Shown piece by piece: positions 11,431 to 35,889 of a DNA stretch of 57,489 nt (the stretch's first letter is position 1; every line of letters begins with the position of its first letter). The notes beneath the pieces were generated by a model, which searched no databases, was not told the origin of the DNA, and saw nothing but the letters and a program-made list of their open reading frames with translations. The translations under genes were made by a program, and so were the position numbers. The stretch lies in assembly GCA_017829005.1 (NCBI GenBank), contig JAGAJF010000130.1, forward strand, positions 1 through 57,489, read 5' to 3'. Origin of the DNA: Oscillospiraceae bacterium. GTDB taxonomy: Bacteria; Bacillota; Clostridia; Oscillospirales; Ruminococcaceae.

Positions 11431-11802
11431 ATGAATTTCATTGACGAAGCATTATCCAAAGGACTTAAAAATGATGATTTTCTGCAAGCAATGGCAGACA
11501 TTTATAATCACCCCGAGGTTCGGGAATGTCTGGACAAATATCCCCAATTCATTCGGGATGTAATTACAATTATTGATTACGATACCGAACTGTCAATGGA
11601 GGGATTGGACTTCCGTGATTACTCAAATGAGATCAATGCGCTGAACAGGGCAGGACTTAAAACGGAAGCAGAGCTGTTGTCAAAAGTATGTGATGATAAT
11701 GATACTTTGAATGATGTTTATGACCATTTGGCAATTAACAATGATTATGATGGTTTTTGGGATACTGTAAGGGCGTATATTGATAACAATATATCCAGAT
11801 AA
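11431..11802 (+). CDS. Small acidic protein, weakly DMP19/DUF4375-like
   Basis: A 123-residue soluble acidic protein, with no signal peptide or cysteine motif. The core FIRDVITIIDYDTELSMEGL followed by INALNRAGLKTEAELLSKV recalls the DMP19/DUF4375 pattern, in which a helix is followed by an NGG-F loop and an AL...AG...A..L segment. The NGG itself is replaced by MEG, so the match is weak. The start at 11431 is preferred over 11407 because AGCAGGTG lies 8 nt before it. It sits between mtaD and ahcY, but nothing ties it to SAH metabolism. DMP19-like proteins often occur as orphan immunity-like genes. Function unknown. Confidence 0.6.
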   Translation: MNFIDEALSKGLKNDDFLQAMADIYNHPEVRECLDKYPQFIRDVITIIDYDTELSMEGLDFRDYSNEINALNRAGLKTEAELLSKVCDDNDTLNDVYDHLAINNDYDGFWDTVRAYIDNNISR

Positions 11803-11803
11803 A

Positions 11804-11873
11804 CGTTACCGAGCCACAAATTAAAAAATTTATACAAGACCTCTGAGCGAGGTCGCCGCGGGTCGTCACCCGC
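11804..11873 (+). repeat. Structured dispersed element, copy C (ahcY leader)
   Basis: Begins 1 nt after the stop of the preceding gene with CGTTACCGAGCC, the same head as copies A and B. It continues with an AT-rich centre, a GACCTC/GAGGTC hairpin (11838-11854) and a tail hairpin GCGGGT/ACCCGC around CGTC (11858-11873). The tail is followed by the ahcY ribosome binding site. The last 20 nt plus AT recur exactly, inverted, at the right edge of the window. Confidence 0.7.
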
Positions 11874-11892: not shown

Positions 11893-13143
11893 ATGTTAAA
11901 CACAAGTGAGATCAGAAACCCCGAGCTTTGGGAAAGCGGAGCAAGAAAAATTGAGTGGGTAAAGCAGAATATGCCCCTGCTCAGAGGAATCGAGGAGGAA
12001 TTTTCAAAGGAGAAGCCTTTTGCAGGGCTGAAGGTTGCACTGTCCGTTCATCTTGAGGCAAAGACCGCATATCTTTGCAAGGTGCTTGCGGCAGGCGGTG
12101 CGGATATGTATGTCACAGGCTCAAATCCCCTGTCCACTCAGGACGATGTGGCTGCGGCTCTCGTTCATGACGGTTTGAAGGTATTTGCCTGGTACAATGC
12201 AACAGATGAGGAATATCACCGCCACATTGCACGTGTTATCGAGGCAGGCCCCAACATTATCATTGACGACGGCGGCGACCTTGTTCACCTTATCCACACC
12301 GAACACCCCGAGCTTATCCCCAACGTTATCGGCGGCTGCGAGGAGACCACTACGGGCATTATCCGCCTTATTGCAATGAACAGGGCAGGAGAGCTGAAAT
12401 TCCCTATGGTGCTTGTTAACAACGCCGACTGCAAGCACCTTTTCGACAACCGCTACGGTACGGGGCAGTCTGTATGGGACGGCATCAACCGCACTACTAA
12501 CCTTATCGTTGCAGGCAAAAACGTTGTTGTGGCAGGCTATGGCTGGTGCGGCAAGGGCGTTGCTATGAGAGCAAAGGGTCTTGGCGCTTCGGTAATTGTC
12601 ACCGAAGTTGACCCCATAAAGGCAATGGAGGCTGTTATGGACGGCTTCAAGGTAATGAAAATGGAGGAAGCCGCTAAAATAGGCGATTTCTTCGTTACCG
12701 TTACGGGCTGCGACGGCGTTATCACCGAAAAGAGCTTTGTTAATATGAAGGACGGTGCGGTATGCTGCAATGCGGGTCATTTCGACTGCGAGGTTGATGT
12801 GGCATGGCTTCGTGAAAACTGCGTTAAATCGTGGATAGCACGCAACAATATTATGGGCTATGAGCTGAAAAACGGCAGAAGCATATACATCATCGCCGAG
12901 GGCAGGCTTGTAAATCTTGCGGCGGGAGACGGTCACCCTGCGGAAATTATGGATATGTCCTTTGCGGTGCAGGCAATGAGTGCGCTTCATCTTGTTAAGA
13001 ACAAGGGCAAGCTTGACAGTATGATAATTGACGTTCCCCGTGAGGTGGATATGGAAATTGCAAGGAGAAAGCTTGCGGCTTGGAATATTGAAATTGACAA
13101 GCTCACCCCCGAGCAGGAGGCATATCTTAACAAGGGACTTTGA
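11893..13143 (+). CDS. ahcY: Adenosylhomocysteinase, HxExK type (possible S-inosylhomocysteine hydrolase)
   Basis: An NAD-dependent hydrolase that splits S-adenosylhomocysteine, or its deaminated form, to homocysteine and a nucleoside. The 416-residue protein has GSNPLSTQDDVAAAL, GGCEETTTGIIRL, NNADCKHLFDNRYGTGQS (catalytic Asp, Lys, Asp, Asn region) and the NAD-binding VVVAGYGWCGKGVAMRAKG. At residues 53-57 it reads HLEAK, the HxExK form known from archaeal and Thermotoga enzymes, instead of the usual HxTxE that contacts the adenine amino group. It also lacks the C-terminal K...Y tail. With a SAH-type deaminase in the same operon, S-inosylhomocysteine may be the real substrate. Element C forms its leader. 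Confidence 0.92.
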   Translation: MLNTSEIRNPELWESGARKIEWVKQNMPLLRGIEEEFSKEKPFAGLKVALSVHLEAKTAYLCKVLAAGGADMYVTGSNPLSTQDDVAAALVHDGLKVFAWYNATDEEYHRHIARVIEAGPNIIIDDGGDLVHLIHTEHPELIPNVIGGCEETTTGIIRLIAMNRAGELKFPMVLVNNADCKHLFDNRYGTGQSVWDGINRTTNLIVAGKNVVVAGYGWCGKGVAMRAKGLGASVIVTEVDPIKAMEAVMDGFKVMKMEEAAKIGDFFVTVTGCDGVITEKSFVNMKDGAVCCNAGHFDCEVDVAWLRENCVKSWIARNNIMGYELKNGRSIYIIAEGRLVNLAAGDGHPAEIMDMSFAVQAMSALHLVKNKGKLDSMIIDVPREVDMEIARRKLAAWNIEIDKLTPEQEAYLNKGL

Positions 13144-25613: not shown

Positions 25614-28106
25614 TTATTTTCCCAATTCCAAAGCCTCAAAATAAGAAACCGCCCTGATATTTCCCGCCAGCTCCTCGGGCGTAATGCCCGCAGGGAGCTT
25701 TGCTTTGCTCACATAAACCCCCGCCGTGTCCCCGTGAAGGTCGAACCAGTTGTCCGAAAAAAGGCAGTCACCACCCGAAAGCTCAAGGCAAACACTCTTT
25801 GCAAAAGCCTTTGCGGAAACCACTATCTTGAACTTGTTGCCCATATCCGCAGCAGCCACCGAAAGCTCGGGGTCAATAAAGCGAAATCCCTTCGGCTGAA
25901 CGAACATAAAGGTTCCCGAAGAAAGCCTTATGCCCTTTTCCATAATGGTGTACTCAATGTAAGCCTTGTCCCTCATATTATAGGCAATGCCCGTGTTTTC
26001 GGGAGTGAGAACAATGTGATCCTCGGCGGAAAGCGGCTTTATGACCACATTTTCCATACCCTGAGCAATAACATCACCCGTGTTCATACGTGACCGCCAC
26101 CTGATAACAGCGGAAAATTCCTCACGTCTCTCGGAGGAAACATTGAGACGGATATTATCCTTGTCCTGACCGTCAGCGGAAATGAGAACTGGGGCATAGA
26201 ATTTCCGAGCATTGTAATGAAGCGCCTTCCACCTGTGATAATAATCAACGGAAGACCAGGAAATAACGGGATTTGAGTCATTCACCTGCCAGTAAAGAGA
26301 ACCCATACAAACTCCCCTGTTTCGGCGCATATGCTCAACATTCAGCCGCACAGCATCAGACTGCACCATCTGAGTTGCATAAACAAGCCCCTCAAATGTG
26401 TAAGGATAATGGGACATCTGAGCAAGGTAATACATAATTTTCTCATTGCCGTCCTCGCACTTCTGATGCGCCTCCATTACGGGAGACATCAGATTAAGAT
26501 CCCCCTCCTCGGCAAATTTCCTAACCGTTTTCAGAGACGGAACAGACTCAAAGCCGTATTCGGAGCAAAAACGGAATTTGTAGCTGTAATAATCGGTAAA
26601 GGGCTTTAAGCTGTGCCATACCGCCCAGTAATGCTGATCGCCCTTGTTGTTCGCGCCGCTGTCATTGAAGCCGCCGCCCGAGGAAGGCGAGGACGGGTGA
26701 TAAAATGTCACAGGGTCATAAAATTCAAGCACCTTCGGGATAAGCGCCTCAAAAAGTCTCAGATAATCCTTCTTGTACTCGGGGTCGGCGTCAATTCCCC
26801 AATACTGCCACATAGACTCTATCTCATTGTTGCCGCACCACATTGCAAGGGAAGGGTGATTTCTCAAACGCTTCACATTGTCAACCGCTTCGTTCTTTAC
26901 ATTGCTGCAAAAATCCACGTCCGCACGATAAACGGAGCAGGCAAACATAAAATCCTGCCAGACAAGAAGTCCCAGCCTGTCGCAGGCGTCGTAAAAATAA
27001 TCATCGGGATAATATCCGCCGCCCCAGACACGTATCATATTGAAATTCGCCATCACGCACTGCTTTAAAAGCTTCTCGGTCTTTTCTGCGCTGCACCTTG
27101 AAATTATCTGATCCTCGGGAATGTAATTTGCACCCATAGCAAAAATTTTAATGCCGTTAACCACAAAAGCAAATTCCTCGCCGTCCCCCTCACCGTCGGG
27201 AGTGCGGCTAACCGTAACCGTCCTGAGACCGATATTTTCCGTGTGAACGTCCACCTCCCCGCCCTTGTCATAAAGCTTGACGGAAAGTGCATACAAAGGC
27301 TGTGCGCCGTAATTGTGAGGATACCAAAGCTCTGCATTTTCAATTTCGCAGGAAAGGCATACCTTGCGGCTGTCCCCGATCTCTGCGGACATTTCATATT
27401 CCATTCCATCGGGAGCCGTGATAACCGCCTTAACGGACAGCTCCTCGGAGCATTTCCTGCCTGCGGTCACTTCAACAGAAAGCCCAACAATTCCCTCGTC
27501 TGCTTTACTGTGATCCTGCCTTACATATACCCCGTCAATAACGCCGCCCCTAACGCCGATAAGCTCCACATCACGCCATATGCCCATATCGGGGAGCTTA
27601 GGACCCCAGTCCCAGCCGAACATATAATGCGCCTTGCGGATATGAGGATATCCCGCAATAGTTGAAGCCACACCCCACAGCGGCTCCTTTTCGTTTTTCT
27701 CACGGATAAATTTAAGAGGCGAGAAAATATTCACCCTCAGCGCATTGCCAACAGGTCTGATAATGTCCGTAACATCAAAAACATATTCCCTGTGCATATT
27801 CTCCGCCGTACCGATGACATTCCCGTTTAAGACTATCTCGGCAAGAGTGTCAATGCCGTAAAATTTAAGCAGCACCCTGTCCGAAGCCATCATCTCATCA
27901 TCAATATCGAAGCTCCGTTCAAAGGCAATATCCCTGTCGGAAATATCCGTTGAAATGTATTCATTTTCACGGTAATACGGGTCGTCCATAAGCCCCTCAC
28001 TTAGCATTGCCGAATACAGCGACCCTGGGACCGAAACGGGGATATTAAGCTTTTCGGGTTCGTTTATATCAAAGAGAGTCCATTGTCCGTTAAGAGATAT
28101 TGTCAT
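25614..28106 (-). CDS. Beta-mannosidase, glycoside hydrolase family 2
   Basis: An 830-residue GH2 enzyme releasing mannose from beta-mannosides such as mannan oligosaccharides. It has no signal peptide and acts in the cytoplasm. The N-terminal jelly roll has SLNGQWTLFDI and VPGSLYSAMLSEGLMDDPYY. HYMFGWDWGPKLPDMGIWRD is typical of the beta-mannosidase branch. The TIM barrel holds the acid/base Glu428 in MWCGNNEIESMW and the nucleophile Glu516 in RFCSEYGFES. YWQVNDSNPVISWSSVDYY also fits. Its promoter (28196-28224) is a perfect consensus. No mannan transporter is adjacent, although a sugar-binding lipoprotein gene lies 3.4 kb away on the same strand. Confidence 0.93.
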   Translation of the reverse strand: MTISLNGQWTLFDINEPEKLNIPVSVPGSLYSAMLSEGLMDDPYYRENEYISTDISDRDIAFERSFDIDDEMMASDRVLLKFYGIDTLAEIVLNGNVIGTAENMHREYVFDVTDIIRPVGNALRVNIFSPLKFIREKNEKEPLWGVASTIAGYPHIRKAHYMFGWDWGPKLPDMGIWRDVELIGVRGGVIDGVYVRQDHSKADEGIVGLSVEVTAGRKCSEELSVKAVITAPDGMEYEMSAEIGDSRKVCLSCEIENAELWYPHNYGAQPLYALSVKLYDKGGEVDVHTENIGLRTVTVSRTPDGEGDGEEFAFVVNGIKIFAMGANYIPEDQIISRCSAEKTEKLLKQCVMANFNMIRVWGGGYYPDDYFYDACDRLGLLVWQDFMFACSVYRADVDFCSNVKNEAVDNVKRLRNHPSLAMWCGNNEIESMWQYWGIDADPEYKKDYLRLFEALIPKVLEFYDPVTFYHPSSPSSGGGFNDSGANNKGDQHYWAVWHSLKPFTDYYSYKFRFCSEYGFESVPSLKTVRKFAEEGDLNLMSPVMEAHQKCEDGNEKIMYYLAQMSHYPYTFEGLVYATQMVQSDAVRLNVEHMRRNRGVCMGSLYWQVNDSNPVISWSSVDYYHRWKALHYNARKFYAPVLISADGQDKDNIRLNVSSERREEFSAVIRWRSRMNTGDVIAQGMENVVIKPLSAEDHIVLTPENTGIAYNMRDKAYIEYTIMEKGIRLSSGTFMFVQPKGFRFIDPELSVAAADMGNKFKIVVSAKAFAKSVCLELSGGDCLFSDNWFDLHGDTAGVYVSKAKLPAGITPEELAGNIRAVSYFEALELGK

Positions 28107-28125
28107 GTATACCGTCCTTTCATAA

Positions 28126-28153
28126 CTTTATTCTTTATTCTTTATTCTTTATT
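28126..28153. repeat. CTTTATT heptamer tract, four copies
   Basis: Four perfect tandem copies of CTTTATT in the leader of the beta-mannosidase gene, immediately upstream (minus sense) of its ribosome binding site. A related imperfect tract lies at 34715-34750, also in a minus-strand leader. Slippage there could alter leader length. Confidence 0.75.
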
Positions 28154-28195
28154 CTTCAAAAACAAAAGTCATCATTTAACAATTTACCTATAATC

Positions 28196-28224
28196 ATTAT
28201 AGCACATCCGTTCCTAAATGTCAA
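28196..28224 (-). promoter_or_regulatory. Perfect sigma-A promoter for beta-mannosidase
   Basis: Minus strand TTGACA (28219-28224), 17-nt spacer, TATAAT (28196-28201): an exact consensus promoter, about 90 nt upstream of the start at 28106. No operator-like palindrome overlaps it. Confidence 0.85.
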
Positions 28225-28228
28225 TAGC

Positions 28229-28264
28229 AAAATAAAAATTTCCCGAAAAATTTTTCTGGGAAAT
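28229..28264 (-). terminator. Terminator of histidine phosphatase gene
   Basis: Minus strand ATTTCCC and GGGAAAT arms (28258-28264 and 28238-28244), an A/T-rich loop, then TTTTATTTT. It lies 67 nt past the stop at 28331 and just upstream of the next promoter. Confidence 0.65.
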
Positions 28265-28301
28265 CCACATAAATAATATTATTCGGGAAACTCATTTGCA
28301 T

Positions 28302-28368
28302 CGTTACCGAGCCGACAGTCTGCCGCCCGATCAAATTTCAGAACGATCGGCTGCAGGCTCAGCCTGCC
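28302..28368 (+). repeat. Structured dispersed element, copy A
   Basis: 67 nt reading CGTTACCGAGC at its head and ending in the hairpin GCAGGC-TCA-GCCTGC. Hand alignment to copy B shows 56 of 67 identical positions without gaps. The innermost stem pair is C-G here and T-A in copy B, so it covaries. An additional CCGATC/GATCGG stem lies in the middle. It overlaps the last 13 codons of the phosphatase gene, in antisense. Confidence 0.75.
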
Positions 28369-28891
28369 TAAGTTCGCAGTTGCCCATAAAGAAATGAGCA
28401 AACTCCTCACGGGTCATATCACGGAAATAGGTCTCAATGACCCTGCAAACGCCGCCGTGACAAACGAGAAGGATATTCTTGTGGGGATATTTCTCATACA
28501 GCTCGTCGATAAGCCCGTAGACCCTGTTCACAAGGTCAAAAACCGACTCGCCGCCCCCTGCCATACGGCAGCCGAATTCCAGCTTGTTTTCAAGAAAGCC
28601 CTCTGTGTCACGGGGCTTGCCCTCGAAGCTGCCGTAATCCCATTCTCTGAGCCGCTCATCGTAAACAGGCTCTATGCCAAGCGCCATAGCCGCATAGCCC
28701 GCCGTGTCCCTCGCCCGTTTCATAGGCGAGCAGACTATCATATCAATATCCCTATGCTCTGCCGCAAGCCTGTCAGCAAGCTCTTTTGCCTGCAAATGAC
28801 CCTTTTGGCTCAGCTCAATGTCCGTCCTTCCGCAGATGATGTTCCTGCTATTCCATTCGGTCTCCCCGTGTCGGGTAAAGTAAATTTTCAT
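28331..28891 (-). CDS. Histidine phosphatase family protein
   Basis: A 186-residue phosphoglycerate-mutase-like phosphatase: YFTRHGETEWNSRNIICGRTD with the catalytic His8 in RHG, CSPMKRARDTA (second Arg), ERLREWDYGSFEG (acid) and NILLVCHGGVCRV (second His). Members include alpha-ribazole, phosphoserine and small-metabolite phosphatases; the substrate cannot be set from sequence. The last 13 codons (about RQAEPAADRSEI and stop) lie inside repeat element A in antisense, so the native C-terminus may have been replaced by the element. Transcribed alone, followed by a terminator at 28229-28264. Confidence 0.87.
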   Translation of the reverse strand: MKIYFTRHGETEWNSRNIICGRTDIELSQKGHLQAKELADRLAAEHRDIDMIVCSPMKRARDTAGYAAMALGIEPVYDERLREWDYGSFEGKPRDTEGFLENKLEFGCRMAGGGESVFDLVNRVYGLIDELYEKYPHKNILLVCHGGVCRVIETYFRDMTREEFAHFFMGNCELRQAEPAADRSEI

Positions 28892-28914
28892 AAAATGCTC
28901 CGCCTTAAAAATAA

Positions 28915-29997
28915 TCAGTGTATTCCAATTTCACCGCAAAGCCTCTGTATCTCGAGAGCGTTTTCATCGGTGCTTGTAATAATGCTGTCCCCGTCCGAGC
29001 AAATTGTCACAAGCTTGTAGTCCGAGGTCACAGCGTAAATGGTGTGCTGCCCCGCATCGCAGGCATAGCTTTCGGATATCATCTTCGCTTTCCTGTCCGC
29101 CCCGTCCGCAAGCTCACGAATTTTTTTAAGAGTATCGGTAATGCTGCTGTCGGAGGCATCAGGCTCTCCCTCAGAGCATATTTCCATCAGCGCAGAGATA
29201 AACTCCTCATCGGAGTCGATCTCCTCACCGTTATAGTTTTCCGCCCCAAAATCATAGGAATACACATTGCCGCTCATATCAATGACATTACCGCTGTGCT
29301 GATATCCCCACGCCCAGTTTCTGTATTCGGTGATAAGCGCAATATCCGTGCTGTAGCTCTGAACATCGTATTCCTCACGCTCCGAAACATTCTCCTCCTT
29401 TGCAATGAGCCTTTCCATAAGGGCGTATAAGGAATATTCCTCTTCGCCCTCCGAGCGCACGCAGACAGTGTCCTTGCCGTAAACGCCGTGTCTGAGAAGA
29501 TATGACGCCTCCGAGCCGTTTTCGGTAAAGCGTACTTCATTGTATGCATACCGGTTTCCCAACACGTCAGTCAAGGTAAGACTGACATCACAGCCGATGT
29601 TGACCCCGTAAAATTCTCTTGTATCGGTCTCAGGCAGAGCTTCGGTGAGAGCGATAAACTCCGCGACCTCGGCAATTTCCTCTTTATCGGTTATTTCGCC
29701 CACATACATCGTCCTTGTGTCGGTCTCCTCGTCATAAACGATAACAGAACCGCTTACAGAATATCCCGAGATATCACGCTCCGATAATTTAACGGGCAAA
29801 AGCGCAGGATTGACCCATTCGGTCTCCGAAGCTGTTTCCGTTTCGGCAACGCTTTCCGTTAACTGCTCCGTTTCGGTTATCCCTTCCGTCAAGGAACCTT
29901 CGGAAACCGCCTCCGTCTCCATAACCTCCGAAGAAGCCGAGCAGGCGGTAAGAAGCAGCATTCCCACAAGTATAAAGGCTCTGACGAATTTCATCAT
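28915..29997 (-). CDS. Lipoprotein of unknown function
   Basis: A 360-residue lipoprotein: MMKFVRAFILVGMLLLTACSAS with lipobox LTAC (Cys19), then a Glu/Thr/Ser-rich linker to about residue 60. The remaining 300 residues have mixed strands and helices (SGYSVSGSVIVYDEETDTRTMYVG; EFYGVNIGCDVSLTLTDVLG; AGQHTIYAVTSDYKLVTICSDG) without a known motif. Either of two adjacent ATGs (29997, 29994) could start it; GGGAGG favours the second. A promoter-like block at 30022-30056 matches one upstream of another exported protein (52778), hinting at shared envelope-stress control. Function unknown. Confidence 0.75.
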   Translation of the reverse strand: MMKFVRAFILVGMLLLTACSASSEVMETEAVSEGSLTEGITETEQLTESVAETETASETEWVNPALLPVKLSERDISGYSVSGSVIVYDEETDTRTMYVGEITDKEEIAEVAEFIALTEALPETDTREFYGVNIGCDVSLTLTDVLGNRYAYNEVRFTENGSEASYLLRHGVYGKDTVCVRSEGEEEYSLYALMERLIAKEENVSEREEYDVQSYSTDIALITEYRNWAWGYQHSGNVIDMSGNVYSYDFGAENYNGEEIDSDEEFISALMEICSEGEPDASDSSITDTLKKIRELADGADRKAKMISESYACDAGQHTIYAVTSDYKLVTICSDGDSIITSTDENALEIQRLCGEIGIH

Positions 29998-30021
29998 AAA
30001 GACCTCCCGATGTTATTATTT

Positions 30022-30056
30022 ACAAAATAAACAACAGCCGCAGGGAATTTTTGTCA
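30022..30056 (-). promoter_or_regulatory. ECF-sigma-like promoter block, copy 1
   Basis: On the minus strand TGACAAAAATTCCC, then after a further 7 nt GTTGTTTATT. The block aligns without gaps over 35 nt with 52813-52847, identical in the TTCCC and GTTGTTTATT parts. The layout (TGnnAA-type -35, about 15 nt, GTTGTTT) is unlike sigma-A and resembles ECF promoters. Confidence 0.45.
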
Positions 30057-30078
30057 CGCCATTTGTAAACTTTTTATT

Positions 30079-30119
30079 AAAAAAGCCAAAAGCAGAGGGA
30101 AATTCCGCCGCTTTCGGCT
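30079..30119 (-). terminator. Terminator of the 30132-31334 gene
   Basis: Minus strand AGCCGAAAGC pairs with GCTTTTGGCT, imperfectly in the middle, and is followed by TTTTTT. It lies directly after the stop at 30132. Confidence 0.7.
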
Positions 30120-30131
30120 CTTGAAGAATTA

Positions 30132-31334
30132 TCAGTCAACAAGCTCGGGGTCGAAGGATTCCTTCCAGGGAAGTCCCCACTTGTTCAGAGCGTCCATAAA
30201 GGGATCGGGGTCAAATTCCTCGATGTTGTAAACACCCGGCTTCTTCCACTTGCCGGTCATAACCATCATAGCGCCTATCATAGCAGGCACGCCCGTGGTG
30301 TAGGAAATTGCCTGAGAGCCAACCTCCGCATAGCACTCCTCGTGAACGCATACGTTGTAAACATAGTAATTAACAGGCTTGCCGTCCTTAACGCCCTGCA
30401 TGATGCAGCCGATGTTGGTCTTGCCCTTTGTTCTGGGACCCAGACTTGCGGGGTCGGGGAGAACAGCCTTCAGGAACTGGAGAGGAACTATCTCCATACC
30501 GTTATAATTTATAGGCTCGATAGAGGTCATACCCACATTCTCAAGGCACTTGAGATGTGTAAGATAGGACTGTCCGAAGGTCATAAAGAAGCGGATCCGC
30601 TTAATACCCTTGATGTTAAGAGCCAGCGACTCAAGCTCCTCGTGGTGAAGAAGATACATATCCTTCTCGCCCACCTCGGGGAAATTGTAAACTCTCTTTA
30701 TCTCCATAGGCTCGGTCTCCACCCACTTGCCGTCCTCGATATAAGAGCCCTTTGCGGAGACCTCACGGATATTTATCTCGGGATTGAAGTTTGTTGCAAA
30801 GGGATAACCGTGGTCGCCCGCATTGCAGTCGAGAATGTCGATGTAGTGTATCTCGTCAAAGTAATGCTTCTGTGCATAAGCGCAGAATACTCCCGTAACG
30901 CCGGGGTCGAAGCCGCTTCCCAGAAGTGCTGTGATACCTGCCTCCTCAAATCTCTCACGATAAGCCCACTGCCAGCTGTATTCAAACTTTGCAGTGTCCT
31001 CAGGCTCGTAGTTAGCGGTGTCCACATAGTCCACCTTGCACTCAAGGCAGGCGTCCATAATTGTAAGGTCCTGATAAGGGAGAGCCACATTTATGCAGAT
31101 GTCAGGCTTAAACTCCTTCATCAAAGCAACAAGCTCCTCAACCTTGTCAGCGTCCACCTTTGCAGTGGAGATCTTTGTCTTTGTCTGCCCCTGCAGCTTT
31201 TCTTTAAGAGCGTCGCACTTGGACTTTGTGCGGGACGCTATCATAATTTCCTCAAACACCTCGGAATTCTGGCAGCACTTGTGAATAACAACGCTTGCCA
31301 CGCCTCCGCAGCCGATTATCAGAGCCTTACCCAT
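30132..31334 (-). CDS. Carboxynorspermidine synthase / saccharopine dehydrogenase family
   Basis: A 400-residue NAD(P)-dependent reductase: MGKALIIGCGGVASVVIHKC (Rossmann), MIASRTKSKCDAL, CINVALPYQDLTIMDACLE, DYVDTANYEP, GSGFDPGVTGVFCAYAQKH and INPEINIREVSAKGSY-like blocks (here FNPEINIREVSAKGSY). In gut Firmicutes this type is usually carboxynorspermidine dehydrogenase, which condenses aspartate semialdehyde with a diamine on the way to (nor)spermidine. Saccharopine dehydrogenase is the alternative. No carboxynorspermidine decarboxylase lies in the window to settle it. The start at 31334 follows GGAGG; the upstream ATG at 31430 lies in the promoter. Confidence 0.87.
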   Translation of the reverse strand: MGKALIIGCGGVASVVIHKCCQNSEVFEEIMIASRTKSKCDALKEKLQGQTKTKISTAKVDADKVEELVALMKEFKPDICINVALPYQDLTIMDACLECKVDYVDTANYEPEDTAKFEYSWQWAYRERFEEAGITALLGSGFDPGVTGVFCAYAQKHYFDEIHYIDILDCNAGDHGYPFATNFNPEINIREVSAKGSYIEDGKWVETEPMEIKRVYNFPEVGEKDMYLLHHEELESLALNIKGIKRIRFFMTFGQSYLTHLKCLENVGMTSIEPINYNGMEIVPLQFLKAVLPDPASLGPRTKGKTNIGCIMQGVKDGKPVNYYVYNVCVHEECYAEVGSQAISYTTGVPAMIGAMMVMTGKWKKPGVYNIEEFDPDPFMDALNKWGLPWKESFDPELVD

Positions 31335-31383
31335 TTTAAGATTACCTCCGCTGTATTTTTTAATTATCCGCAATGACAAAAAA

Positions 31384-31430
31384 GCATTGCCCTTAAAAAT
31401 AATTATACCACATTTTTTCGGGCAATGCAA
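31384..31430 (-). promoter_or_regulatory. Promoter with flanking 9-bp inverted repeat
   Basis: Minus strand TTGCAT (31425-31430), 17-nt spacer, TATAAT (31402-31407) with a TGG extension. A perfect inverted repeat GCATTGCCC (31384-31392) / GGGCAATGC (31420-31428) brackets the -10, one arm overlapping the -35. This is an operator candidate for the polyamine gene. Confidence 0.6.
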
Positions 31431-31454
31431 TTATTATTTTGTAAAATCGGAGTA

Positions 31455-31492
31455 TAAAAAAGTCCCTCTCCGCCTGTGAGACAGAGAGGGAT
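31455..31492 (-). terminator. Terminator of sugar-binding lipoprotein gene
   Basis: Minus strand TCCCTCTC and GAGAGGGA arms around a 13-nt loop, then CTTTTTT. It lies 25 nt past the stop at 31517. Confidence 0.85.
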
Positions 31493-31516
31493 ATTTTAAT
31501 AATACGCTGTTAAAAA

Positions 31517-32971
31517 TCAGCCAAGCTCCTTGATCTGAGCGTCAGCCTCAGCAACCAGCATATTGACAACTTCGCTGATCTCGTCTCTTGTGGTTGCCCA
31601 CTCATAGCCGTGGAAAGCAGCACGGAGACCAATCTCGGAGCCGCCGTCGGTGGTGAGGGAAGCAACATCGGTGGAAACGCCTGTAGCAAGGTCAACAACG
31701 GGATACTTGGCAGCAAGCTCGTTTATCTCCTTGTTGCGTGCGATCAGGTCATCGGACCACTGGTAGTCATCTCTGAGCTTCTGGTCGCCGATAGCGATAG
31801 CCTCGTCGTTGGTGTTTGCAAGACGTGTGCACTCAGCAAAGAGAGCAACACCTGTGGGGTTAGCCGCACCCTTGCATATTACCCAGCCGTCCAGAGTAGC
31901 AGACTGATAAGGATCGGAGCCTGCAGGAGAGGGAACGGGAGCAAAGCCCAGATTATCGGGAGATATCTGTGTTGCCCATGTATCGGGGTTAGCCTGAACG
32001 TCCCAGGAGCCTACGATGTAGAAAAGCTCCTTGCCCTCGCCCATAAACTGAGGCTGGATATTCCAGTCATAGAGTGAAAGGTCGAAAACAAGACCCTTGT
32101 TGTAAAGCTCGTAGCTCCAGTTCATTGCCTTTTCAATGGTGGGGTCATTCAGATTAACGGTCAGAGTACCGTCAACGGAAGAAACGGAAGGAACGCCTGC
32201 AGAGAGGAGAAGAGCCTTCTCGTTGAACCAGCCGTCAAGACCGTACTGCTCATTTTCCACGTCAACAAAGCTCTCAAGCATAGAGGTGAAGGTATCCCAG
32301 TTCCACTCGCCTGCCTTGTAAAGCTCCCAGGGATCGTCAAAGCCGTTTTCCTCGATGGTCTGCTTGTTGTATATAACGAGCTGCTCAGCGGAAACGCTGT
32401 TAACAAGCTCGTAGTGCTTGCCGTTGAAGTTGTATATCTCCATAGCGGGCTTCATATCAGTCCAGAGGGGAGAATCCATATCTATGTATTCGTCGATAGG
32501 CTGGAACATTCCGTTGATAACGCCCTTGGGAAGAGCCGCTGTATCACAGGGGAAGAAGTCGATGCCCTCGCCGCCCAGAACGCTTGTGGAAAGATCGGAG
32601 TAACGGCTGTTCCAAGTGGTGGGGTACCACTGTACCTCGCCGCCGTACTTGTTTTTGAAAAGGTTAAGGGGAACGGACTCGGAGTTTCCTGTACCCGAAG
32701 GGTTAATGTCGTAGTGAGCAAGCCACTTGATGGTCTTGTTCTCAAGCTCAACATCACGGAGATTTTCCTCAGCCACCTGATCGAGAGTCTTCTGATCCTC
32801 CTCCGCAACGGTAGCGGTGTTCACCTCAACAGTTACCGCAGTGGTGGTCTCCACAGTAGCTTCGGTGGTCTCCTGAGAAGTACCGCCTTCGCTGTTTCCG
32901 CCGCAGGCAGTAAGACCCATTGTGAGCGTCAGTGCGGAGATACCCGCGATGGTTTTCTTAAAATTCTTCAT
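31517..32971 (-). CDS. ABC-transporter extracellular solute-binding lipoprotein (sugar type)
   Basis: A 484-residue lipoprotein: MKNFKKTIAGISALTLTMGLTAC with lipobox LTAC, then a Thr/Glu/Val linker. The mature part is a carbohydrate-binding protein of the family 1 (MalE-like) type: WLAHYDINPSG, FPCDTAALPKGVINGMFQPIDEYID, YNKQTIEENGFDDPWELYKAGEWNWDTFTSML and FAPVPSPAGSDPYQSATLDGWVI. Sugar uptake is inferred. It starts at 32971 (AAAGGA, 9 nt). No permease or ATPase gene adjoins it, so its partner components are elsewhere. It has its own strong promoter and terminator, consistent with an abundant monocistronic binding protein. Confidence 0.9.
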   Translation of the reverse strand: MKNFKKTIAGISALTLTMGLTACGGNSEGGTSQETTEATVETTTAVTVEVNTATVAEEDQKTLDQVAEENLRDVELENKTIKWLAHYDINPSGTGNSESVPLNLFKNKYGGEVQWYPTTWNSRYSDLSTSVLGGEGIDFFPCDTAALPKGVINGMFQPIDEYIDMDSPLWTDMKPAMEIYNFNGKHYELVNSVSAEQLVIYNKQTIEENGFDDPWELYKAGEWNWDTFTSMLESFVDVENEQYGLDGWFNEKALLLSAGVPSVSSVDGTLTVNLNDPTIEKAMNWSYELYNKGLVFDLSLYDWNIQPQFMGEGKELFYIVGSWDVQANPDTWATQISPDNLGFAPVPSPAGSDPYQSATLDGWVICKGAANPTGVALFAECTRLANTNDEAIAIGDQKLRDDYQWSDDLIARNKEINELAAKYPVVDLATGVSTDVASLTTDGGSEIGLRAAFHGYEWATTRDEISEVVNMLVAEADAQIKELG

Positions 32972-33026
32972 TTCAAACATTCCTTTCATTCTCCAAAGCT
33001 TTATCTGAATAAAACTTGCTAAAAAT

Positions 33027-33055
33027 ATTGTATCATATCTGACTGTAAATGTCAA
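33027..33055 (-). promoter_or_regulatory. Sigma-A promoter for sugar-binding lipoprotein
   Basis: Minus strand TTGACA (33050-33055), 17-nt spacer, TACAAT (33027-33032). Near-consensus and about 55 nt upstream of the start at 32971. Confidence 0.8.
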
Positions 33056-33265
33056 ATGTTTTTGTATAATTTTTCGTTTGGATATGATATTTTTTCACTT
33101 AAATTAAAAGATTTTTTATGGAATATATTTTAAATTTATATTATCCGACCTTTTTCGACAATTTTTTTATTCCAATTTGTTTTATAATCCCAAATAAAGA
33201 AAAAAATGAGTTATAATATATAATATATCACTGCGTCATACGCTGAAAGGATTGAACCATTCAAT

Positions 33266-33511
33266 ATGAACTACATAGCAGCCGAACGTCTGAGAGCGCT
33301 CCGTGAGGACAACGACTACACCCAGAGGGAGATCGCAGCCCTGCTGAGATGCTCTCAGGTCAGCTATTCACATTATGAGATCGGGCGGCGGGATATCCCC
33401 CTTGACCACCTTGTGACCCTGGCCGAGTTTTACGGCGTCAGCGTGGACTATATCCTGGGCATTACCGACTCCAAGCAGAGATACCCTGAGACCGCAGTCC
33501 CCAAGGGCTAA
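33266..33511 (+). CDS. XRE-family helix-turn-helix regulator
   Basis: An 81-residue single-domain DNA-binding protein: AERLRALREDNDYTQREIAALLRCSQVSYSHYEIGRRDIPLDHLVTLAEFYGVSVDYILG, the full Cro/CI-type HTH_3 fold. The recognition helix is QVSYSHYEIG. It has an AAAGGA site upstream. It is divergent from the sugar-binding lipoprotein gene, so it may regulate that promoter or itself, but no palindrome stands out in the 210-nt AT-rich space between them. Its stop overlaps the convergent transporter gene by 4 nt. Confidence 0.88.
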   Translation: MNYIAAERLRALREDNDYTQREIAALLRCSQVSYSHYEIGRRDIPLDHLVTLAEFYGVSVDYILGITDSKQRYPETAVPKG

Positions 33512-34581
33512 CCCGTGTCTCTTCTGCTTTCTATCTTCTCCCTGATAAGGGTGTAAGCCGCCGAAACAAGGGGAATGCCCAGCATAATGCCTGCCGCTCC
33601 CCCAAGCTCCGCCCCCGCGATGATCGCCGCCAGAATAAGTATAGGCGGCAGACCCACGCTCTTTCCCACCACCTTCGGGTAGATAAAATTATTTTCAAGC
33701 TGCTGGAGTATTATGATGAACACCAGAAACCACAGGGCTGAGGAGGGCTTAACAAGAAAGAGTATAAGGGCGGAGGGTATGGCTCCCGCAATAGCCCCTG
33801 CCACAGGCACAAGAGCAGTCACAGCGATTATTGCGCTGATAAGCAGAGGATATTCAAAGCCGAAAAGCACCATTCCCATAAAGCAGAGAGTACCGAGAAC
33901 AGCCGCCTCCGACAGCTGACCCGCTATAAAGCTCACGAAACAGGAGTTTACGGCGGATATGACACGGGCGGCTTTTTTGTATGCCCCGTCGGATAATGCT
34001 GCCCTTGCCGCTGAGCTTACAAACTCAATGAGAACGTCCTTCTGGGCAAGGATATACACCGACAGCACCGCCCCCACAAGAAATGAAGCCGTCCCTTTGA
34101 GGAAGTCCGCTGTGACCTTATATGTGCGGTCGAAAAGCCCCGGCAGACGGAGAGATATCTGCTCGATAAGGCTGTCAAGGAGCCGTACAAGTACGGGAGC
34201 GTCCGCCCCGCCGCTTTCATACCGTCTGCGGAAATCGCTGTAATAGCCATCAACACTGTTTACAAAAAGAGCGGCGCTTTCCCAGAGCTTGGGCAGGATA
34301 AGCATAGCCGCAGCGGCAATGACCCCTGCAATTATGAGATATACAAGAACTATAGCCGCTCCACGGGCGGCTTTTTTGTTTATTCTCCTGCCGAAAAAGC
34401 CCTCAAAGCGGCATACGGCAGGGTCGATTACCGCCGCAAGCAATATGCCTGTGATAAAGGGCGAAACGGCAGAAAATATAAGCGAGACCGTCCCGCACAC
34501 GTCCTCGGGACGGATAAGCAGCGCCAGAGCCAGAAAGACAAGAAGCCCCGGCGCAAGATATTTTTTATAGCTTCGTCTCAT
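33508..34581 (-). CDS. AI-2E family transporter
   Basis: A 357-residue polytopic membrane protein of the AI-2E (YtvI/YdiK/PerM) family: eight predicted helices, with LVFLALALLIRPED, ISPFITGILLAAVIDP-like (here VSPFITGILLAAVIDP), the soluble central region, the late GAIAGAIPSALILFLV and QQLENNFIYPKVVGKSVGLPPILILAAI signature. Family members export autoinducer-2-like molecules or act as Na+/H+ antiporters; neither can be chosen from sequence. Repeat element B lies in its leader, the tail hairpin immediately before the GGGAGGAG site. Confidence 0.85.
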   Translation of the reverse strand: MRRSYKKYLAPGLLVFLALALLIRPEDVCGTVSLIFSAVSPFITGILLAAVIDPAVCRFEGFFGRRINKKAARGAAIVLVYLIIAGVIAAAAMLILPKLWESAALFVNSVDGYYSDFRRRYESGGADAPVLVRLLDSLIEQISLRLPGLFDRTYKVTADFLKGTASFLVGAVLSVYILAQKDVLIEFVSSAARAALSDGAYKKAARVISAVNSCFVSFIAGQLSEAAVLGTLCFMGMVLFGFEYPLLISAIIAVTALVPVAGAIAGAIPSALILFLVKPSSALWFLVFIIILQQLENNFIYPKVVGKSVGLPPILILAAIIAGAELGGAAGIMLGIPLVSAAYTLIREKIESRRDTG

Positions 34582-34591
34582 TTCTCCTCCC

Positions 34592-34658
34592 GGCAGGTTG
34601 AACCTGCAGCCGCTCGTTCTGTAATTTATTTGGGCAGCAAACTGACAGCTCGGTAACG
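34592..34658 (-). repeat. Structured dispersed element, copy B (transporter leader)
   Basis: 67 nt on the minus strand, 84% identical to copy A (11 differences, no gaps). Head CGTTACCGAGC, conserved middle CAGAACGA, tail hairpin GCAGGT-TCA-ACCTGC. The tail directly abuts GGGAGGAG and the ATG of the AI-2E transporter. Confidence 0.75.
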
Positions 34659-34714
34659 ATACAAAAGCTGTCCCAAATTTTATTACTTATATTATGCTCT
34701 CCGCACTCTCCCGT

Positions 34715-34750
34715 ATTCTTTATTATTTATTATTTATTCTTTATTCTTTA
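34715..34750. repeat. Imperfect TTTATTC/TTTATTA tract
   Basis: Tandem heptamer-like units related to the tract at 28126-28153, again in the leader of a minus-strand gene. On its 5' side (minus sense) lies AAAGGAG with no ORF after it, perhaps the relic of a lost gene start. Confidence 0.6.
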
Positions 34751-34813
34751 AATTTCTCCTTTCACGATTTATCTCTATACTCTATTTTAAAAAAATCTCC
34801 ATTTCCAATTTAA

Positions 34814-34846
34814 TAAAAAAAGTCTCCCCCATTAAAAGAGAGAGAC
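34814..34846 (-). terminator. Terminator of yeiH gene
   Basis: Minus strand GTCTC and GAGAC arms (34842-34846 and 34822-34826) with a 15-nt loop, then a run of seven T. The stem is short but the tract is strong. Confidence 0.65.
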
Positions 34847-34854
34847 AAATAATA

Positions 34855-35889
34855 TCAAACTATCCCCACAAAATATTCCACAGCAATAGCCACAATGACC
34901 ACCAGCGCCGAAATGATAAATCCGTGGAGCATAGGAGCAATACCCGATTTTTTCATATCCTTGAAGCTTGTGTTAAGTCCGATAGCCCCGAGAGCCGCAA
35001 TCATAAGGAACTTGCTGATTTCCTTCATACCGTGGGAAACAGAGACAGGGATAAAGCCGAAGCTGTTTATTACCGCAAGACCCACAAATCCGAGAATAAA
35101 GAGTGGGAGTATTTTCGTGATATGAAGCTTTGCCCTGACGCTTTCGCCGCCCTCTGAAGCCGCTTCCTTGCGCTTGATGTGTGCGTTAATGAGCGCAAAC
35201 ACAATGACCGTGGGAATGATGGAAAGCGTGCGGGTGAGCTTTACCATGGTGGCAAAGTCTCCCGCCGCCTCGGAAAATGCATAGCCTGCCGCAACCACGC
35301 TGGAGGTGTCGTTAACGGCAGTGCCTGCCCATAAGCCGTATGCCATATCCGAAAGCCCCATCGCCCTGCCCATAATGGGAAACAGCACTATCATAGCCAT
35401 ATCAAAGAGGAAGGTAGCCGACATAGAGTAAGCAATGTCATTGTCATCGGCGTCAATGACGGGTGCGATAGCCGCAATTGCCGAGCCGCCGCATATTCCC
35501 GTACCCGCGGAAATCAGATTTGAAAGCTTCCAGTTGATTTTAAGAGCCCTGCCCACAAAGTGACCCACTCCGAAGCAGGTCAGCAGGGTGAAGAACATCA
35601 CGCAAAGAGAAAGCTTTCCCACCTCAAGCACGACCGCAATATTAAGGCTTGCCCCAAGAAGGATAATGGCAAATTTCAGCATTTTCTTCGATGTGAATTT
35701 AAGTCCCGGCTCAAAGGTCTCCCCGGGCTTGCGTATGCCGTTTATTATCATTCCGATAAAAAGTGCGATGACCGAGGCACCGATAAGATGTACGGGAAGC
35801 AGACCCTCTATAAATTTTGCGGCTGCCGCTATCACAAGGGCTAAAGCGAAGCCCGGCAGCAGAGCGACAATTTTTTTGACAGTATTCAT
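34855..35889 (-). CDS. YeiH/UPF0324 family putative sulfate or sulfite exporter
   Basis: A 344-residue membrane protein with about ten helices and the family blocks FIGMIINGIRKP, KFAIILLGASLNIAVVLEVGK, LISAGTGICGGSAIAAIAPVIDADD and GLWAGTAVNDTSSVVAAGYAFS. UPF0324/YeiH proteins are predicted to export sulfate or other sulfur oxyanions, mostly on genome-context grounds. The gene is divergent from a LysR regulator, the same arrangement as yeiE-yeiH in enterobacteria, and shares its palindromic promoter region. The GGAGAG site fits ATG 35889. Confidence 0.85.
   Translation of the reverse strand: MNTVKKIVALLPGFALALVIAAAAKFIEGLLPVHLIGASVIALFIGMIINGIRKPGETFEPGLKFTSKKMLKFAIILLGASLNIAVVLEVGKLSLCVMFFTLLTCFGVGHFVGRALKINWKLSNLISAGTGICGGSAIAAIAPVIDADDNDIAYSMSATFLFDMAMIVLFPIMGRAMGLSDMAYGLWAGTAVNDTSSVVAAGYAFSEAAGDFATMVKLTRTLSIIPTVIVFALINAHIKRKEAASEGGESVRAKLHITKILPLFILGFVGLAVINSFGFIPVSVSHGMKEISKFLMIAALGAIGLNTSFKDMKKSGIAPMLHGFIISALVVIVAIAVEYFVGIV

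What the first reader, a model, noticed from the sequence alone, without database searches (positions are those of the whole stretch)
28302..34658. A 67-nt dispersed intergenic element with a covarying tail hairpin (copies A and B)
Seen directly: 28302-28368 (plus) and 34592-34658 (minus) align without gaps with 56 of 67 identities. Both begin CGTTACCGAGC, share CAGAACGA in the middle and end in a hairpin. The closing base pair of that hairpin is C-G in A and T-A in B, so both partners changed and pairing was kept. This suggests selection on RNA or cruciform structure. It is not an insertion sequence (no ORF) nor a simple REP. Whether it is a mobile MITE-like repeat or a functional RNA is open.
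Basis: seen in the sequence. Interest (0 to 1): 0.7.

Follow-up and report, generated by a model that had tools for sequence, protein, structure and literature searches.

The report
Stop-codon-hugging modular bacterial repeat
A short non-coding repeat with a conserved hairpin end is scattered through the genomes of a group of uncultured Ruminococcus-like gut bacteria, often placed exactly where a gene ends, and looks like a new family of the small mobile repeats known from other bacteria.

Summary
In detail: A and B match at 56 of 67 (62 of 74) positions, and the apical hairpin pair is C-G in A and T-A in B. They belong to a dispersed family: 50 matches at E<=1e-3 in the own genome, A included, 61 by covariance model, plus a diverged third copy C at 11804-11873. 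Matches occur in 17 of 20 genus genomes, own included, some weak, and in 3 of 98 genomes of other genera in the family. The unit is modular: variable left module, box GTTACCGAGC, variable middle, box AACGA, hairpin tail. Units form tandem arrays, and tails differ between two species at two orthologous sites. The hairpin covaries: 5 of 6 pairs have two-sided changes. One clean and three less clean sites lacking the element show no target duplication. Tails hug stop codons: 11 of 46 tail ends lie 0-4 nt from one, against about 1.3% expected. Best reading: a non-autonomous BOX/REP-like small interspersed repeat with an unknown mobiliser. No Y1 transposase, TnpB or RT domain was found in the own draft genome; no Rfam match.

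The parts
28302..28368 (+). Copy A, box-to-tail part (5' box, variable middle, 3' box, tail-1 hairpin)
28284..28301 (+). Copy A, left module; left end placed at about 28284 by comparison with the G010 site lacking the element
   Evidence: inferred from a diverged site, give or take a few nt
28353..28367 (+). Copy A tail hairpin GCAGGCTCAGCCTGC
   Evidence: genus-wide support for this hairpin
28331..28891 (-). Histidine-phosphatase family gene whose last codons and stop lie inside copy A (ends CELRQAEPAADRSEI; G010 reads CELRWGEK by my hand translation)
34592..34658 (-). Copy B, box-to-tail part
34659..34677 (-). Copy B, left module; left end placed at about 34677 by comparison with the G010 site lacking the element
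   Evidence: give or take a few nt
34593..34607 (-). Copy B tail hairpin GCAGGTTCAACCTGC, directly in front of the GGGAGGAG ribosome-binding site of the next gene
33508..34581 (-). AI-2E family transporter gene with copy B in front of it
11804..11873 (+). Copy C: diverged core plus tail-2 hairpin GCGGGTCGTCACCCGC (11858-11873), between the TAA stop at 11800-11802 and the ORF starting at 11893

Best explanation
This is a family of small, modular, non-autonomous interspersed repeats (about 85-100 nt per unit) in one genus of uncultured Ruminococcus-like bacteria and a few other genera of its family. A unit is a lineage-specific left module, a conserved GTTACCGAGC box, a variable middle of about 25 nt, a conserved AACGA box, and a hairpin tail of exchangeable type. 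Shown: dispersal, modularity, tandem arrays of differing copy number, different tails at orthologous sites, presence in one species and absence from near relatives, no target-site duplication at the sites compared, hairpin covariation, and a strong excess of tail edges at gene 3' ends. Inferred: copies are moved by an enzyme supplied in trans that recognises the hairpin (no resident candidate identified); insertion next to a stop codon is favoured or selectively tolerated; and, where it lies between stop codon and terminator, the hairpin is transcribed as the start of the 3' UTR and may affect mRNA decay or the end of translation, as proposed for REP and BOX elements.
For: 50 own-genome matches at E<=1e-3 with A as query, A included and 61 at E<=0.01 with the CM. 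Tail types by pattern: 34 tail 1, 17 tail 2, 3 unclassified, of 54. Tandem arrays with 66-, 95-, 100- and 105-nt periods. Head-to-head composite pieces 95.5-100% identical over 139-155 nt between G000 contigs C46, C154 and five G010 places, with no long match beyond the repeat. Six tandem units in G000 against one at the orthologous G010 site; tail 2 against tail 1 at another orthologous site, and a second such difference. A and B absent from G010. C116: a 97-nt insertion where G010 has the uninterrupted join AATAACTTT|TGATACTG. C40:12952: a 99-nt insertion directly after the stop codon. Covariation: 0 of 500 shuffles reach any of five measures; 99.6% of cells paired against 20.5-46.2% for slid versions. 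11 of 46 tail ends 0-4 nt from a stop codon against 1.26-1.28% of intergenic positions. A tRNA-Pro 3' end abuts one tail exactly.
Against: No mobilising enzyme was found, and only three Pfam families were looked for. Movement is inferred from presence and absence in draft metagenome-assembled genomes. 30 of 46 own-genome tail ends are not within -15 to +4 of a stop, and G010 has only 4 of 35 at 0-4 nt. Expression was not tested. The covariation set was picked by hand from hits of a model that already contains the hairpin, and the 34 own-genome copies were themselves chosen by a hairpin pattern, so hairpin conservation among them is partly circular.
Confidence: 0.7

Rival explanations
1. A functional cis-regulatory or 3'-processing RNA kept at many genes for its activity, not a mobile element. 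The tail hairpin would be a transcript stabiliser or a stop-proximal attenuator.
For: Compensatory changes across the genus; tail flush with stop codons, between stop and terminator at some genes by eye.
Against: Copies are present or absent at the same genes in closely related species; near-identical pieces lie at places that share nothing beyond the repeat; some copies sit in front of genes (B) or hundreds of bases from the next called ORF. Of the core stem proposed by single-sequence folding, one pair fails in 20 of 39 rows and another in 21 of 39. Hairpin identity within the own genome (0.98 against 0.78 for the middle) cannot be used, since those copies were chosen by hairpin pattern.
Confidence: 0.12
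2. A MITE of a DDE transposase: the composite head-to-head form (tail-core-linker-core-tail, about 185-195 nt) is the real element, with cores as long terminal inverted repeats, and single units are broken halves.
For: Composite pieces are nearly identical between two species and several lie at contig ends; the two cores are in inverted orientation.
Against: No target duplication at the single-unit sites compared. By inspection single units outnumber composites and form their own arrays; the two ends of a composite carry different hairpins. Composites themselves are untested: no clean empty site of one could be aligned.
Confidence: 0.1
3. A REP-like element moved by a Y1 (HUH) transposase of the RAYT or IS200/IS605 kind.
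For: Hairpin end, no target duplication, intergenic dispersal.
Against: No Y1_Tnp match in G000 or G010; of the 16 genus genomes in that search only G012 has one. TnpB (PF07282) not found in G000 or G010. No fixed tetranucleotide outside the tails by eye. The genomes are drafts, so a missing gene is not proof.
Confidence: 0.08

Closest known systems
BOX elements of Streptococcus pneumoniae (PMC3049150, passages seen)
   Same: Composite modular repeat with an inner module in variable tandem number, predicted stem-loops, interspersed; of 58 CDSs overlapping BOX elements there, 36 overlap at the extreme 3' end with BOX encoding the stop codon.
   Different: No BOX sequence was compared; here the hairpin tail itself comes in exchangeable types, and conserved boxes flank a variable middle.
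REP/BIME elements of enterobacteria (recalled)
   Same: Short hairpin repeats, mosaic combinations in both orientations, often near gene 3' ends.
   Different: REPs go with Y1 RAYT transposases; none found in the own genome. The unit is longer, with two conserved boxes.
MIRU of Mycobacterium tuberculosis (recalled)
   Same: Tandemly variable intergenic units reported at stop codons within operons.
   Different: Unrelated lineage; not compared by sequence; no hairpin-tail exchange recalled.
Prokaryotic MITEs (review PMC10969869, passages seen)
   Same: Non-autonomous, non-coding, mostly intergenic; QMITE2 is reported there mainly in 3' untranslated regions.
   Different: MITEs have terminal inverted repeats and target duplications (definition seen in PMC3049150); neither was seen for single units here.

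Membership tests
MITE | Terminal inverted repeats on the unit | tested here: not met
   Single units carry a hairpin at one end only; inverted cores occur only in composites
MITE | Target-site duplication | tested here: not met
   C116 (clean) and C40:12952 (flank diverged) show none beyond at most one T; A and B show changed or missing target bases, not duplication. Four single-unit sites only; no composite site tested
REP/BIME | Associated RAYT (Y1) transposase in the genome | tested here: not met
   PF01797: 0 matches in G000 and G010; both are incomplete drafts
REP/BIME | Conserved tetranucleotide next to the hairpin | tested here: inconclusive
   None obvious outside the tails by eye; not scored
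BOX element | Modular composition with modules in variable tandem number | tested here: met
   Tandem units, 6 against 1 at orthologous sites, two tail types
BOX element | Sequence homology to boxA/boxB/boxC | not tested
   No BOX reference sequence was compared
IS200/IS605 or IS607-type element | Y1 TnpA and/or TnpB in the genome | tested here: not met
   PF01797 and PF07282 without matches in G000; the serine TnpA of IS607 was not searched
Retroposed RNA | Reverse transcriptase in the genome | tested here: not met
   PF00078 without matches in G000, G010 and G014; present in 2 of 20 genus genomes
Known RNA family (Rfam 15) | Match at gathering score | tested here: not met
   0 matches in the window and in 20 chosen loci

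The most novel reading that the evidence does not exclude
A mobile repeat whose insertion is targeted to gene 3' ends (stop codons, a tRNA 3' end) without target-site duplication and without any known transposase, with the hairpin tail on the gene side. This would point to an undescribed integration route that reads the end of a coding sequence or transcript, for example priming from RNA 3' ends by an enzyme supplied in trans or since lost.
Probability: 0.12. Interest if true: 0.85.

Novelty: new variant of a known kind. Interest (0 to 1): 0.52.

Why it matters
It adds a well-delimited family of small interspersed repeats in a little-studied gut lineage, with direct evidence that tail modules differ between species at the same site. 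It supplies many natural tests of what a hairpin does immediately after a stop codon, and it poses a clear open question: what enzyme moves it. In practice such repeats lie at contig ends of metagenome assemblies and alter the C-termini of annotated genes.

Tried and rejected
Tail as a classical terminator: the scan of 28000-35000 reported none at A or B; at some loci a separate terminator-like hairpin lies beyond the element (by eye). Integron attC-like site: the box order GTT...AAC is the reverse of attC (recalled, by eye only). A second stem suggested by single-sequence folding (z-scores -0.8 to -2.1, so folding of the 67 nt is not outstanding): 83.8% paired in 34 own-genome copies, 74.4% genus-wide with two pairs failing in 20 and 21 of 39 rows, not adopted. 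Phage or plasmid carriage: no match to A at E<=1e-5 in phages or plasmids; a hairpin pattern gave 0 viral contigs; a loose box pattern gave 24 viral stretches, none with an R2 match at E<=0.01. I picked 29 of those 111 by title; R1 gave 29 matches at E<=0.05 in 19 of the 29 loci. Empty sites sought for the G002 and G010 composites were not alignable. C40:13861 is not an empty site: G010 keeps a remnant of the tail; the C112:56919 and C54 flanks diverge in G010; the weak copy C20:952 has a different insert in G010. The G010 stretch expected to match the tRNA-Pro site diverges before it. Literature: in the listings I recognised no paper on this repeat (one search listed 12 of 9,501, 12 of 16; abstracts' starts only); some searches sought analogues. 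The library lacks most subscription journals.
Full report
Observation. A (28302-28368, +) and B (34592-34658, -) agree at 56 of 67 positions and at 62 of 74 with seven more upstream bases; they are the first and longest of 13 inverted-repeat pairs listed for the window. The hairpins are at 28353-28367 and 34593-34607, and the loop-closing pair is C-G in A and T-A in B. A third, diverged copy C with another hairpin lies at 11804-11873 (R2, 29.8 bits, E=3e-6).

Copy number. With A as query the own genome (2.88 Mb, 163 contigs, 93.7% complete) gives 60 matches at E<=10, of which 50 at E<=1e-3, A included. nhmmer on the fetched stretches gives 54 copies or fragments, one of them at E=0.35. By hairpin pattern: 34 tail 1 (GCAGGCTCAGCCTGC type), 17 tail 2 (GCGGGTCGTCACCCGC type), 3 unclassified. 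CM R1, built from the 34 tail-1 copies, finds 61 matches at E<=0.01 in G000 and matches in 17 of 20 genus genomes, own included; in G005 and G007 a single match, in G017 the best is E=0.003. A plain DNA search at E<=1e-3 found A in 8 of 61 genomes, all of them among the 20 of this genus. CM R2, built from 39 sequences, finds matches in 5 of 100 family genomes at E<=1e-4 (stricter filters, weak matches may be lost): G000 49, G014 44, G134 27, G120 18, G024 1; the last three are other genera, so 3 of the 98 genomes outside the genus.

Anatomy. Mean column identity in the 34 own-genome tail-1 copies: 5' box 0.97, middle 0.78, 3' box 0.92, hairpin 0.98; in the 39-sequence genus set 0.93, 0.57, 0.87, 0.90. 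The hairpin figure for the own genome is inflated, because those copies were sorted by a hairpin pattern. The left module differs between lineages (G000, G012, G014 compared by eye). Tandem arrays: 66-nt period (six units at C26), 100 nt (C46, C54), 95 nt (G014), 105 nt (G012). Head-to-head composites with a linker of about 52 nt occur at C54, C136 and C115 and in G010 and G002; pieces of them in G000 C46 and C154 are 95.5-100% identical over 139-155 nt to five G010 places, with no long match beyond the repeat.

Orthologous sites, G000 against G010. C26: six units against one. C40:4989: tail 2 against tail 1 with the same flanks. C53: the two units lie about 42 nt closer in G000. C110:19934: in G000 the gene runs into the hairpin's TGA, while G010 has nine more bases and its own stop by my reading (all). 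C20: hairpin GCAGGCTCAGCCTGC against GCAGGTTCAACCTGC, a two-sided change at one site, by mutation or by conversion from another copy. C40:17784: tail 2 in G000, part of tail 2 plus tail 1 in G010. Which state is older is not known in any of these.

Sites without the element. B: absent from G010; a few bases at the join differ; no duplication. A: absent from G010 and G013; by hand translation the G010 gene ends RWGEK where G000 has RQAEPAADRSEI with its stop inside A, and about 12 bases of the G010 site are not seen in G000. C116: G000 has AATAACTTT|97 nt|TGATACTGTCGG, G010 has AATAACTTTTGATACTGTCGG uninterrupted (the alignment program placed its gaps differently, the join is my re-reading); G013, G002 and G004 also lack it but are more diverged at the join. 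The insertion lies four bases after the TAA. C40:12952: 99 nt directly after TAA in G000, absent from G010, right flank somewhat diverged, element degenerate.

Position. nhmmer hits of profiles A2 and A3 on the held G000 stretches: 67 hits, of which 10 without a recognisable hairpin and 9 array-internal were dropped and repeated edges merged, leaving 46 tail ends. Hairpin patterns and the rule that extends the edge over short CTCAGCCTGC repeats were written after seeing the copies; without that extension 11 of 54 copies are also 0-4 nt from a stop. Of the 46, 33 face the stop side of the next ORF, 11 the start side, 2 neither; intergenic positions of the same stretches give 14,292 to 13,308. 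11 of 46 have the stop 0-4 nt away, 16 of 46 within -15 to +4, so 30 of 46 are not flush. Random intergenic positions qualify for 0-4 nt in 1.26% (same stretches) and 1.28% (window) of cases; binomial about 1e-11. G010: 4 of 35 and 9 of 35; G013: 2 of 6 and 3 of 6. G010 shares sites with G000, so it is not an independent sample. ORFs are simple longest-ORF calls of at least 70 codons. One tail abuts a tRNA-Pro gene exactly. B and C have the tail just before a ribosome-binding site; in C the 5' box side lies one base after a stop codon.

Covariation. A6 holds 39 sequences from 15 genus genomes: 35 picked by hand from the 101 matches (repeated places, truncated and similar matches left out) and four own copies, aligned by MAFFT without structure. 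Five of six pairs have two-sided changes, 19 cells, 10 further pair types, 99.6% of cells paired; 0 of 500 shuffles reach any measure; slid versions pair 20.5-46.2%. R1, which found these matches, contains the hairpin, so the set leans towards paired tails. Within the 34 own-genome copies only 3 cells have two-sided changes. A core stem is not supported genus-wide.

Mobiliser. PF01797: no match in G000 or G010; G012 alone among the 16 genus genomes of that call. PF07282: 3 of 20 genus genomes, none G000 or G010, one over the cut-off. PF00078: 2 of 20, none G000, G010 or G014. IS91, IS110, serine and tyrosine recombinases were not searched. Absence of target duplication speaks against DDE transposition; absence of an evident common target word (by eye) speaks against strongly site-specific enzymes; both are inferences from few sites.

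Function. Where the copy lies between stop codon and terminator (C116, C40:17784, and A, by eye) the hairpin will be the first part of the 3' UTR. An effect on decay or on the end of translation is inferred by analogy with REP and BOX elements and not tested. The stop-flush excess has three readings: targeting, selection, or a ratchet of small deletions on the tail side (the C110 difference is compatible with that). The two insertions at stop +4 and stop +0 favour flushness at the time of insertion, but two sites are few.

Literature seen. PMC3049150: passages on BOX modules, MITE definition and CDSs ending in BOX elements. PMC10969869: passages on MITE location and RPEs. PMC5009743: the term sought was not in the held text. 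Others: search listings only. MIRU, RAYT and REP statements are recalled.

Noticed in passing
28129-28192 and 34714-34777: Both A and B lie near an AT-rich TATTCTT-type heptamer run (direct repeat D3, 73% identity); similar runs are seen beside some other copies.
   Followed up: no
L294 (G010:C9:26500-28700) against G000 C112:49324 and C145:3479: Synteny breaks right at element copies: one G010 contig matches two different G000 contigs on either side of a copy, either recombination between copies or a chimeric assembly.
   Followed up: no
L003 (G000:C24), L026 (G000:C112), L325 (G013): Another GC-rich hairpin sequence (GGGGACGGGAGACCCGTCCCC type) recurs in the loci and lies close to the element at C24 and C112.
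   Followed up: no
Tails at G000 C20, C24:12676, C26, C40:336, C55, C65: Tail 1 is lengthened by extra copies of a CTCAGCCTGC-like decamer, which by my reading supplies the stop codon of the neighbouring gene at C24:12676 and C65.
   Followed up: partly
28196-28224 (-): Perfect sigma-70 consensus promoter TTGACA-17-TATAAT with TG, upstream of the glycosyl hydrolase family 2 gene 25614-28106.
   Followed up: no
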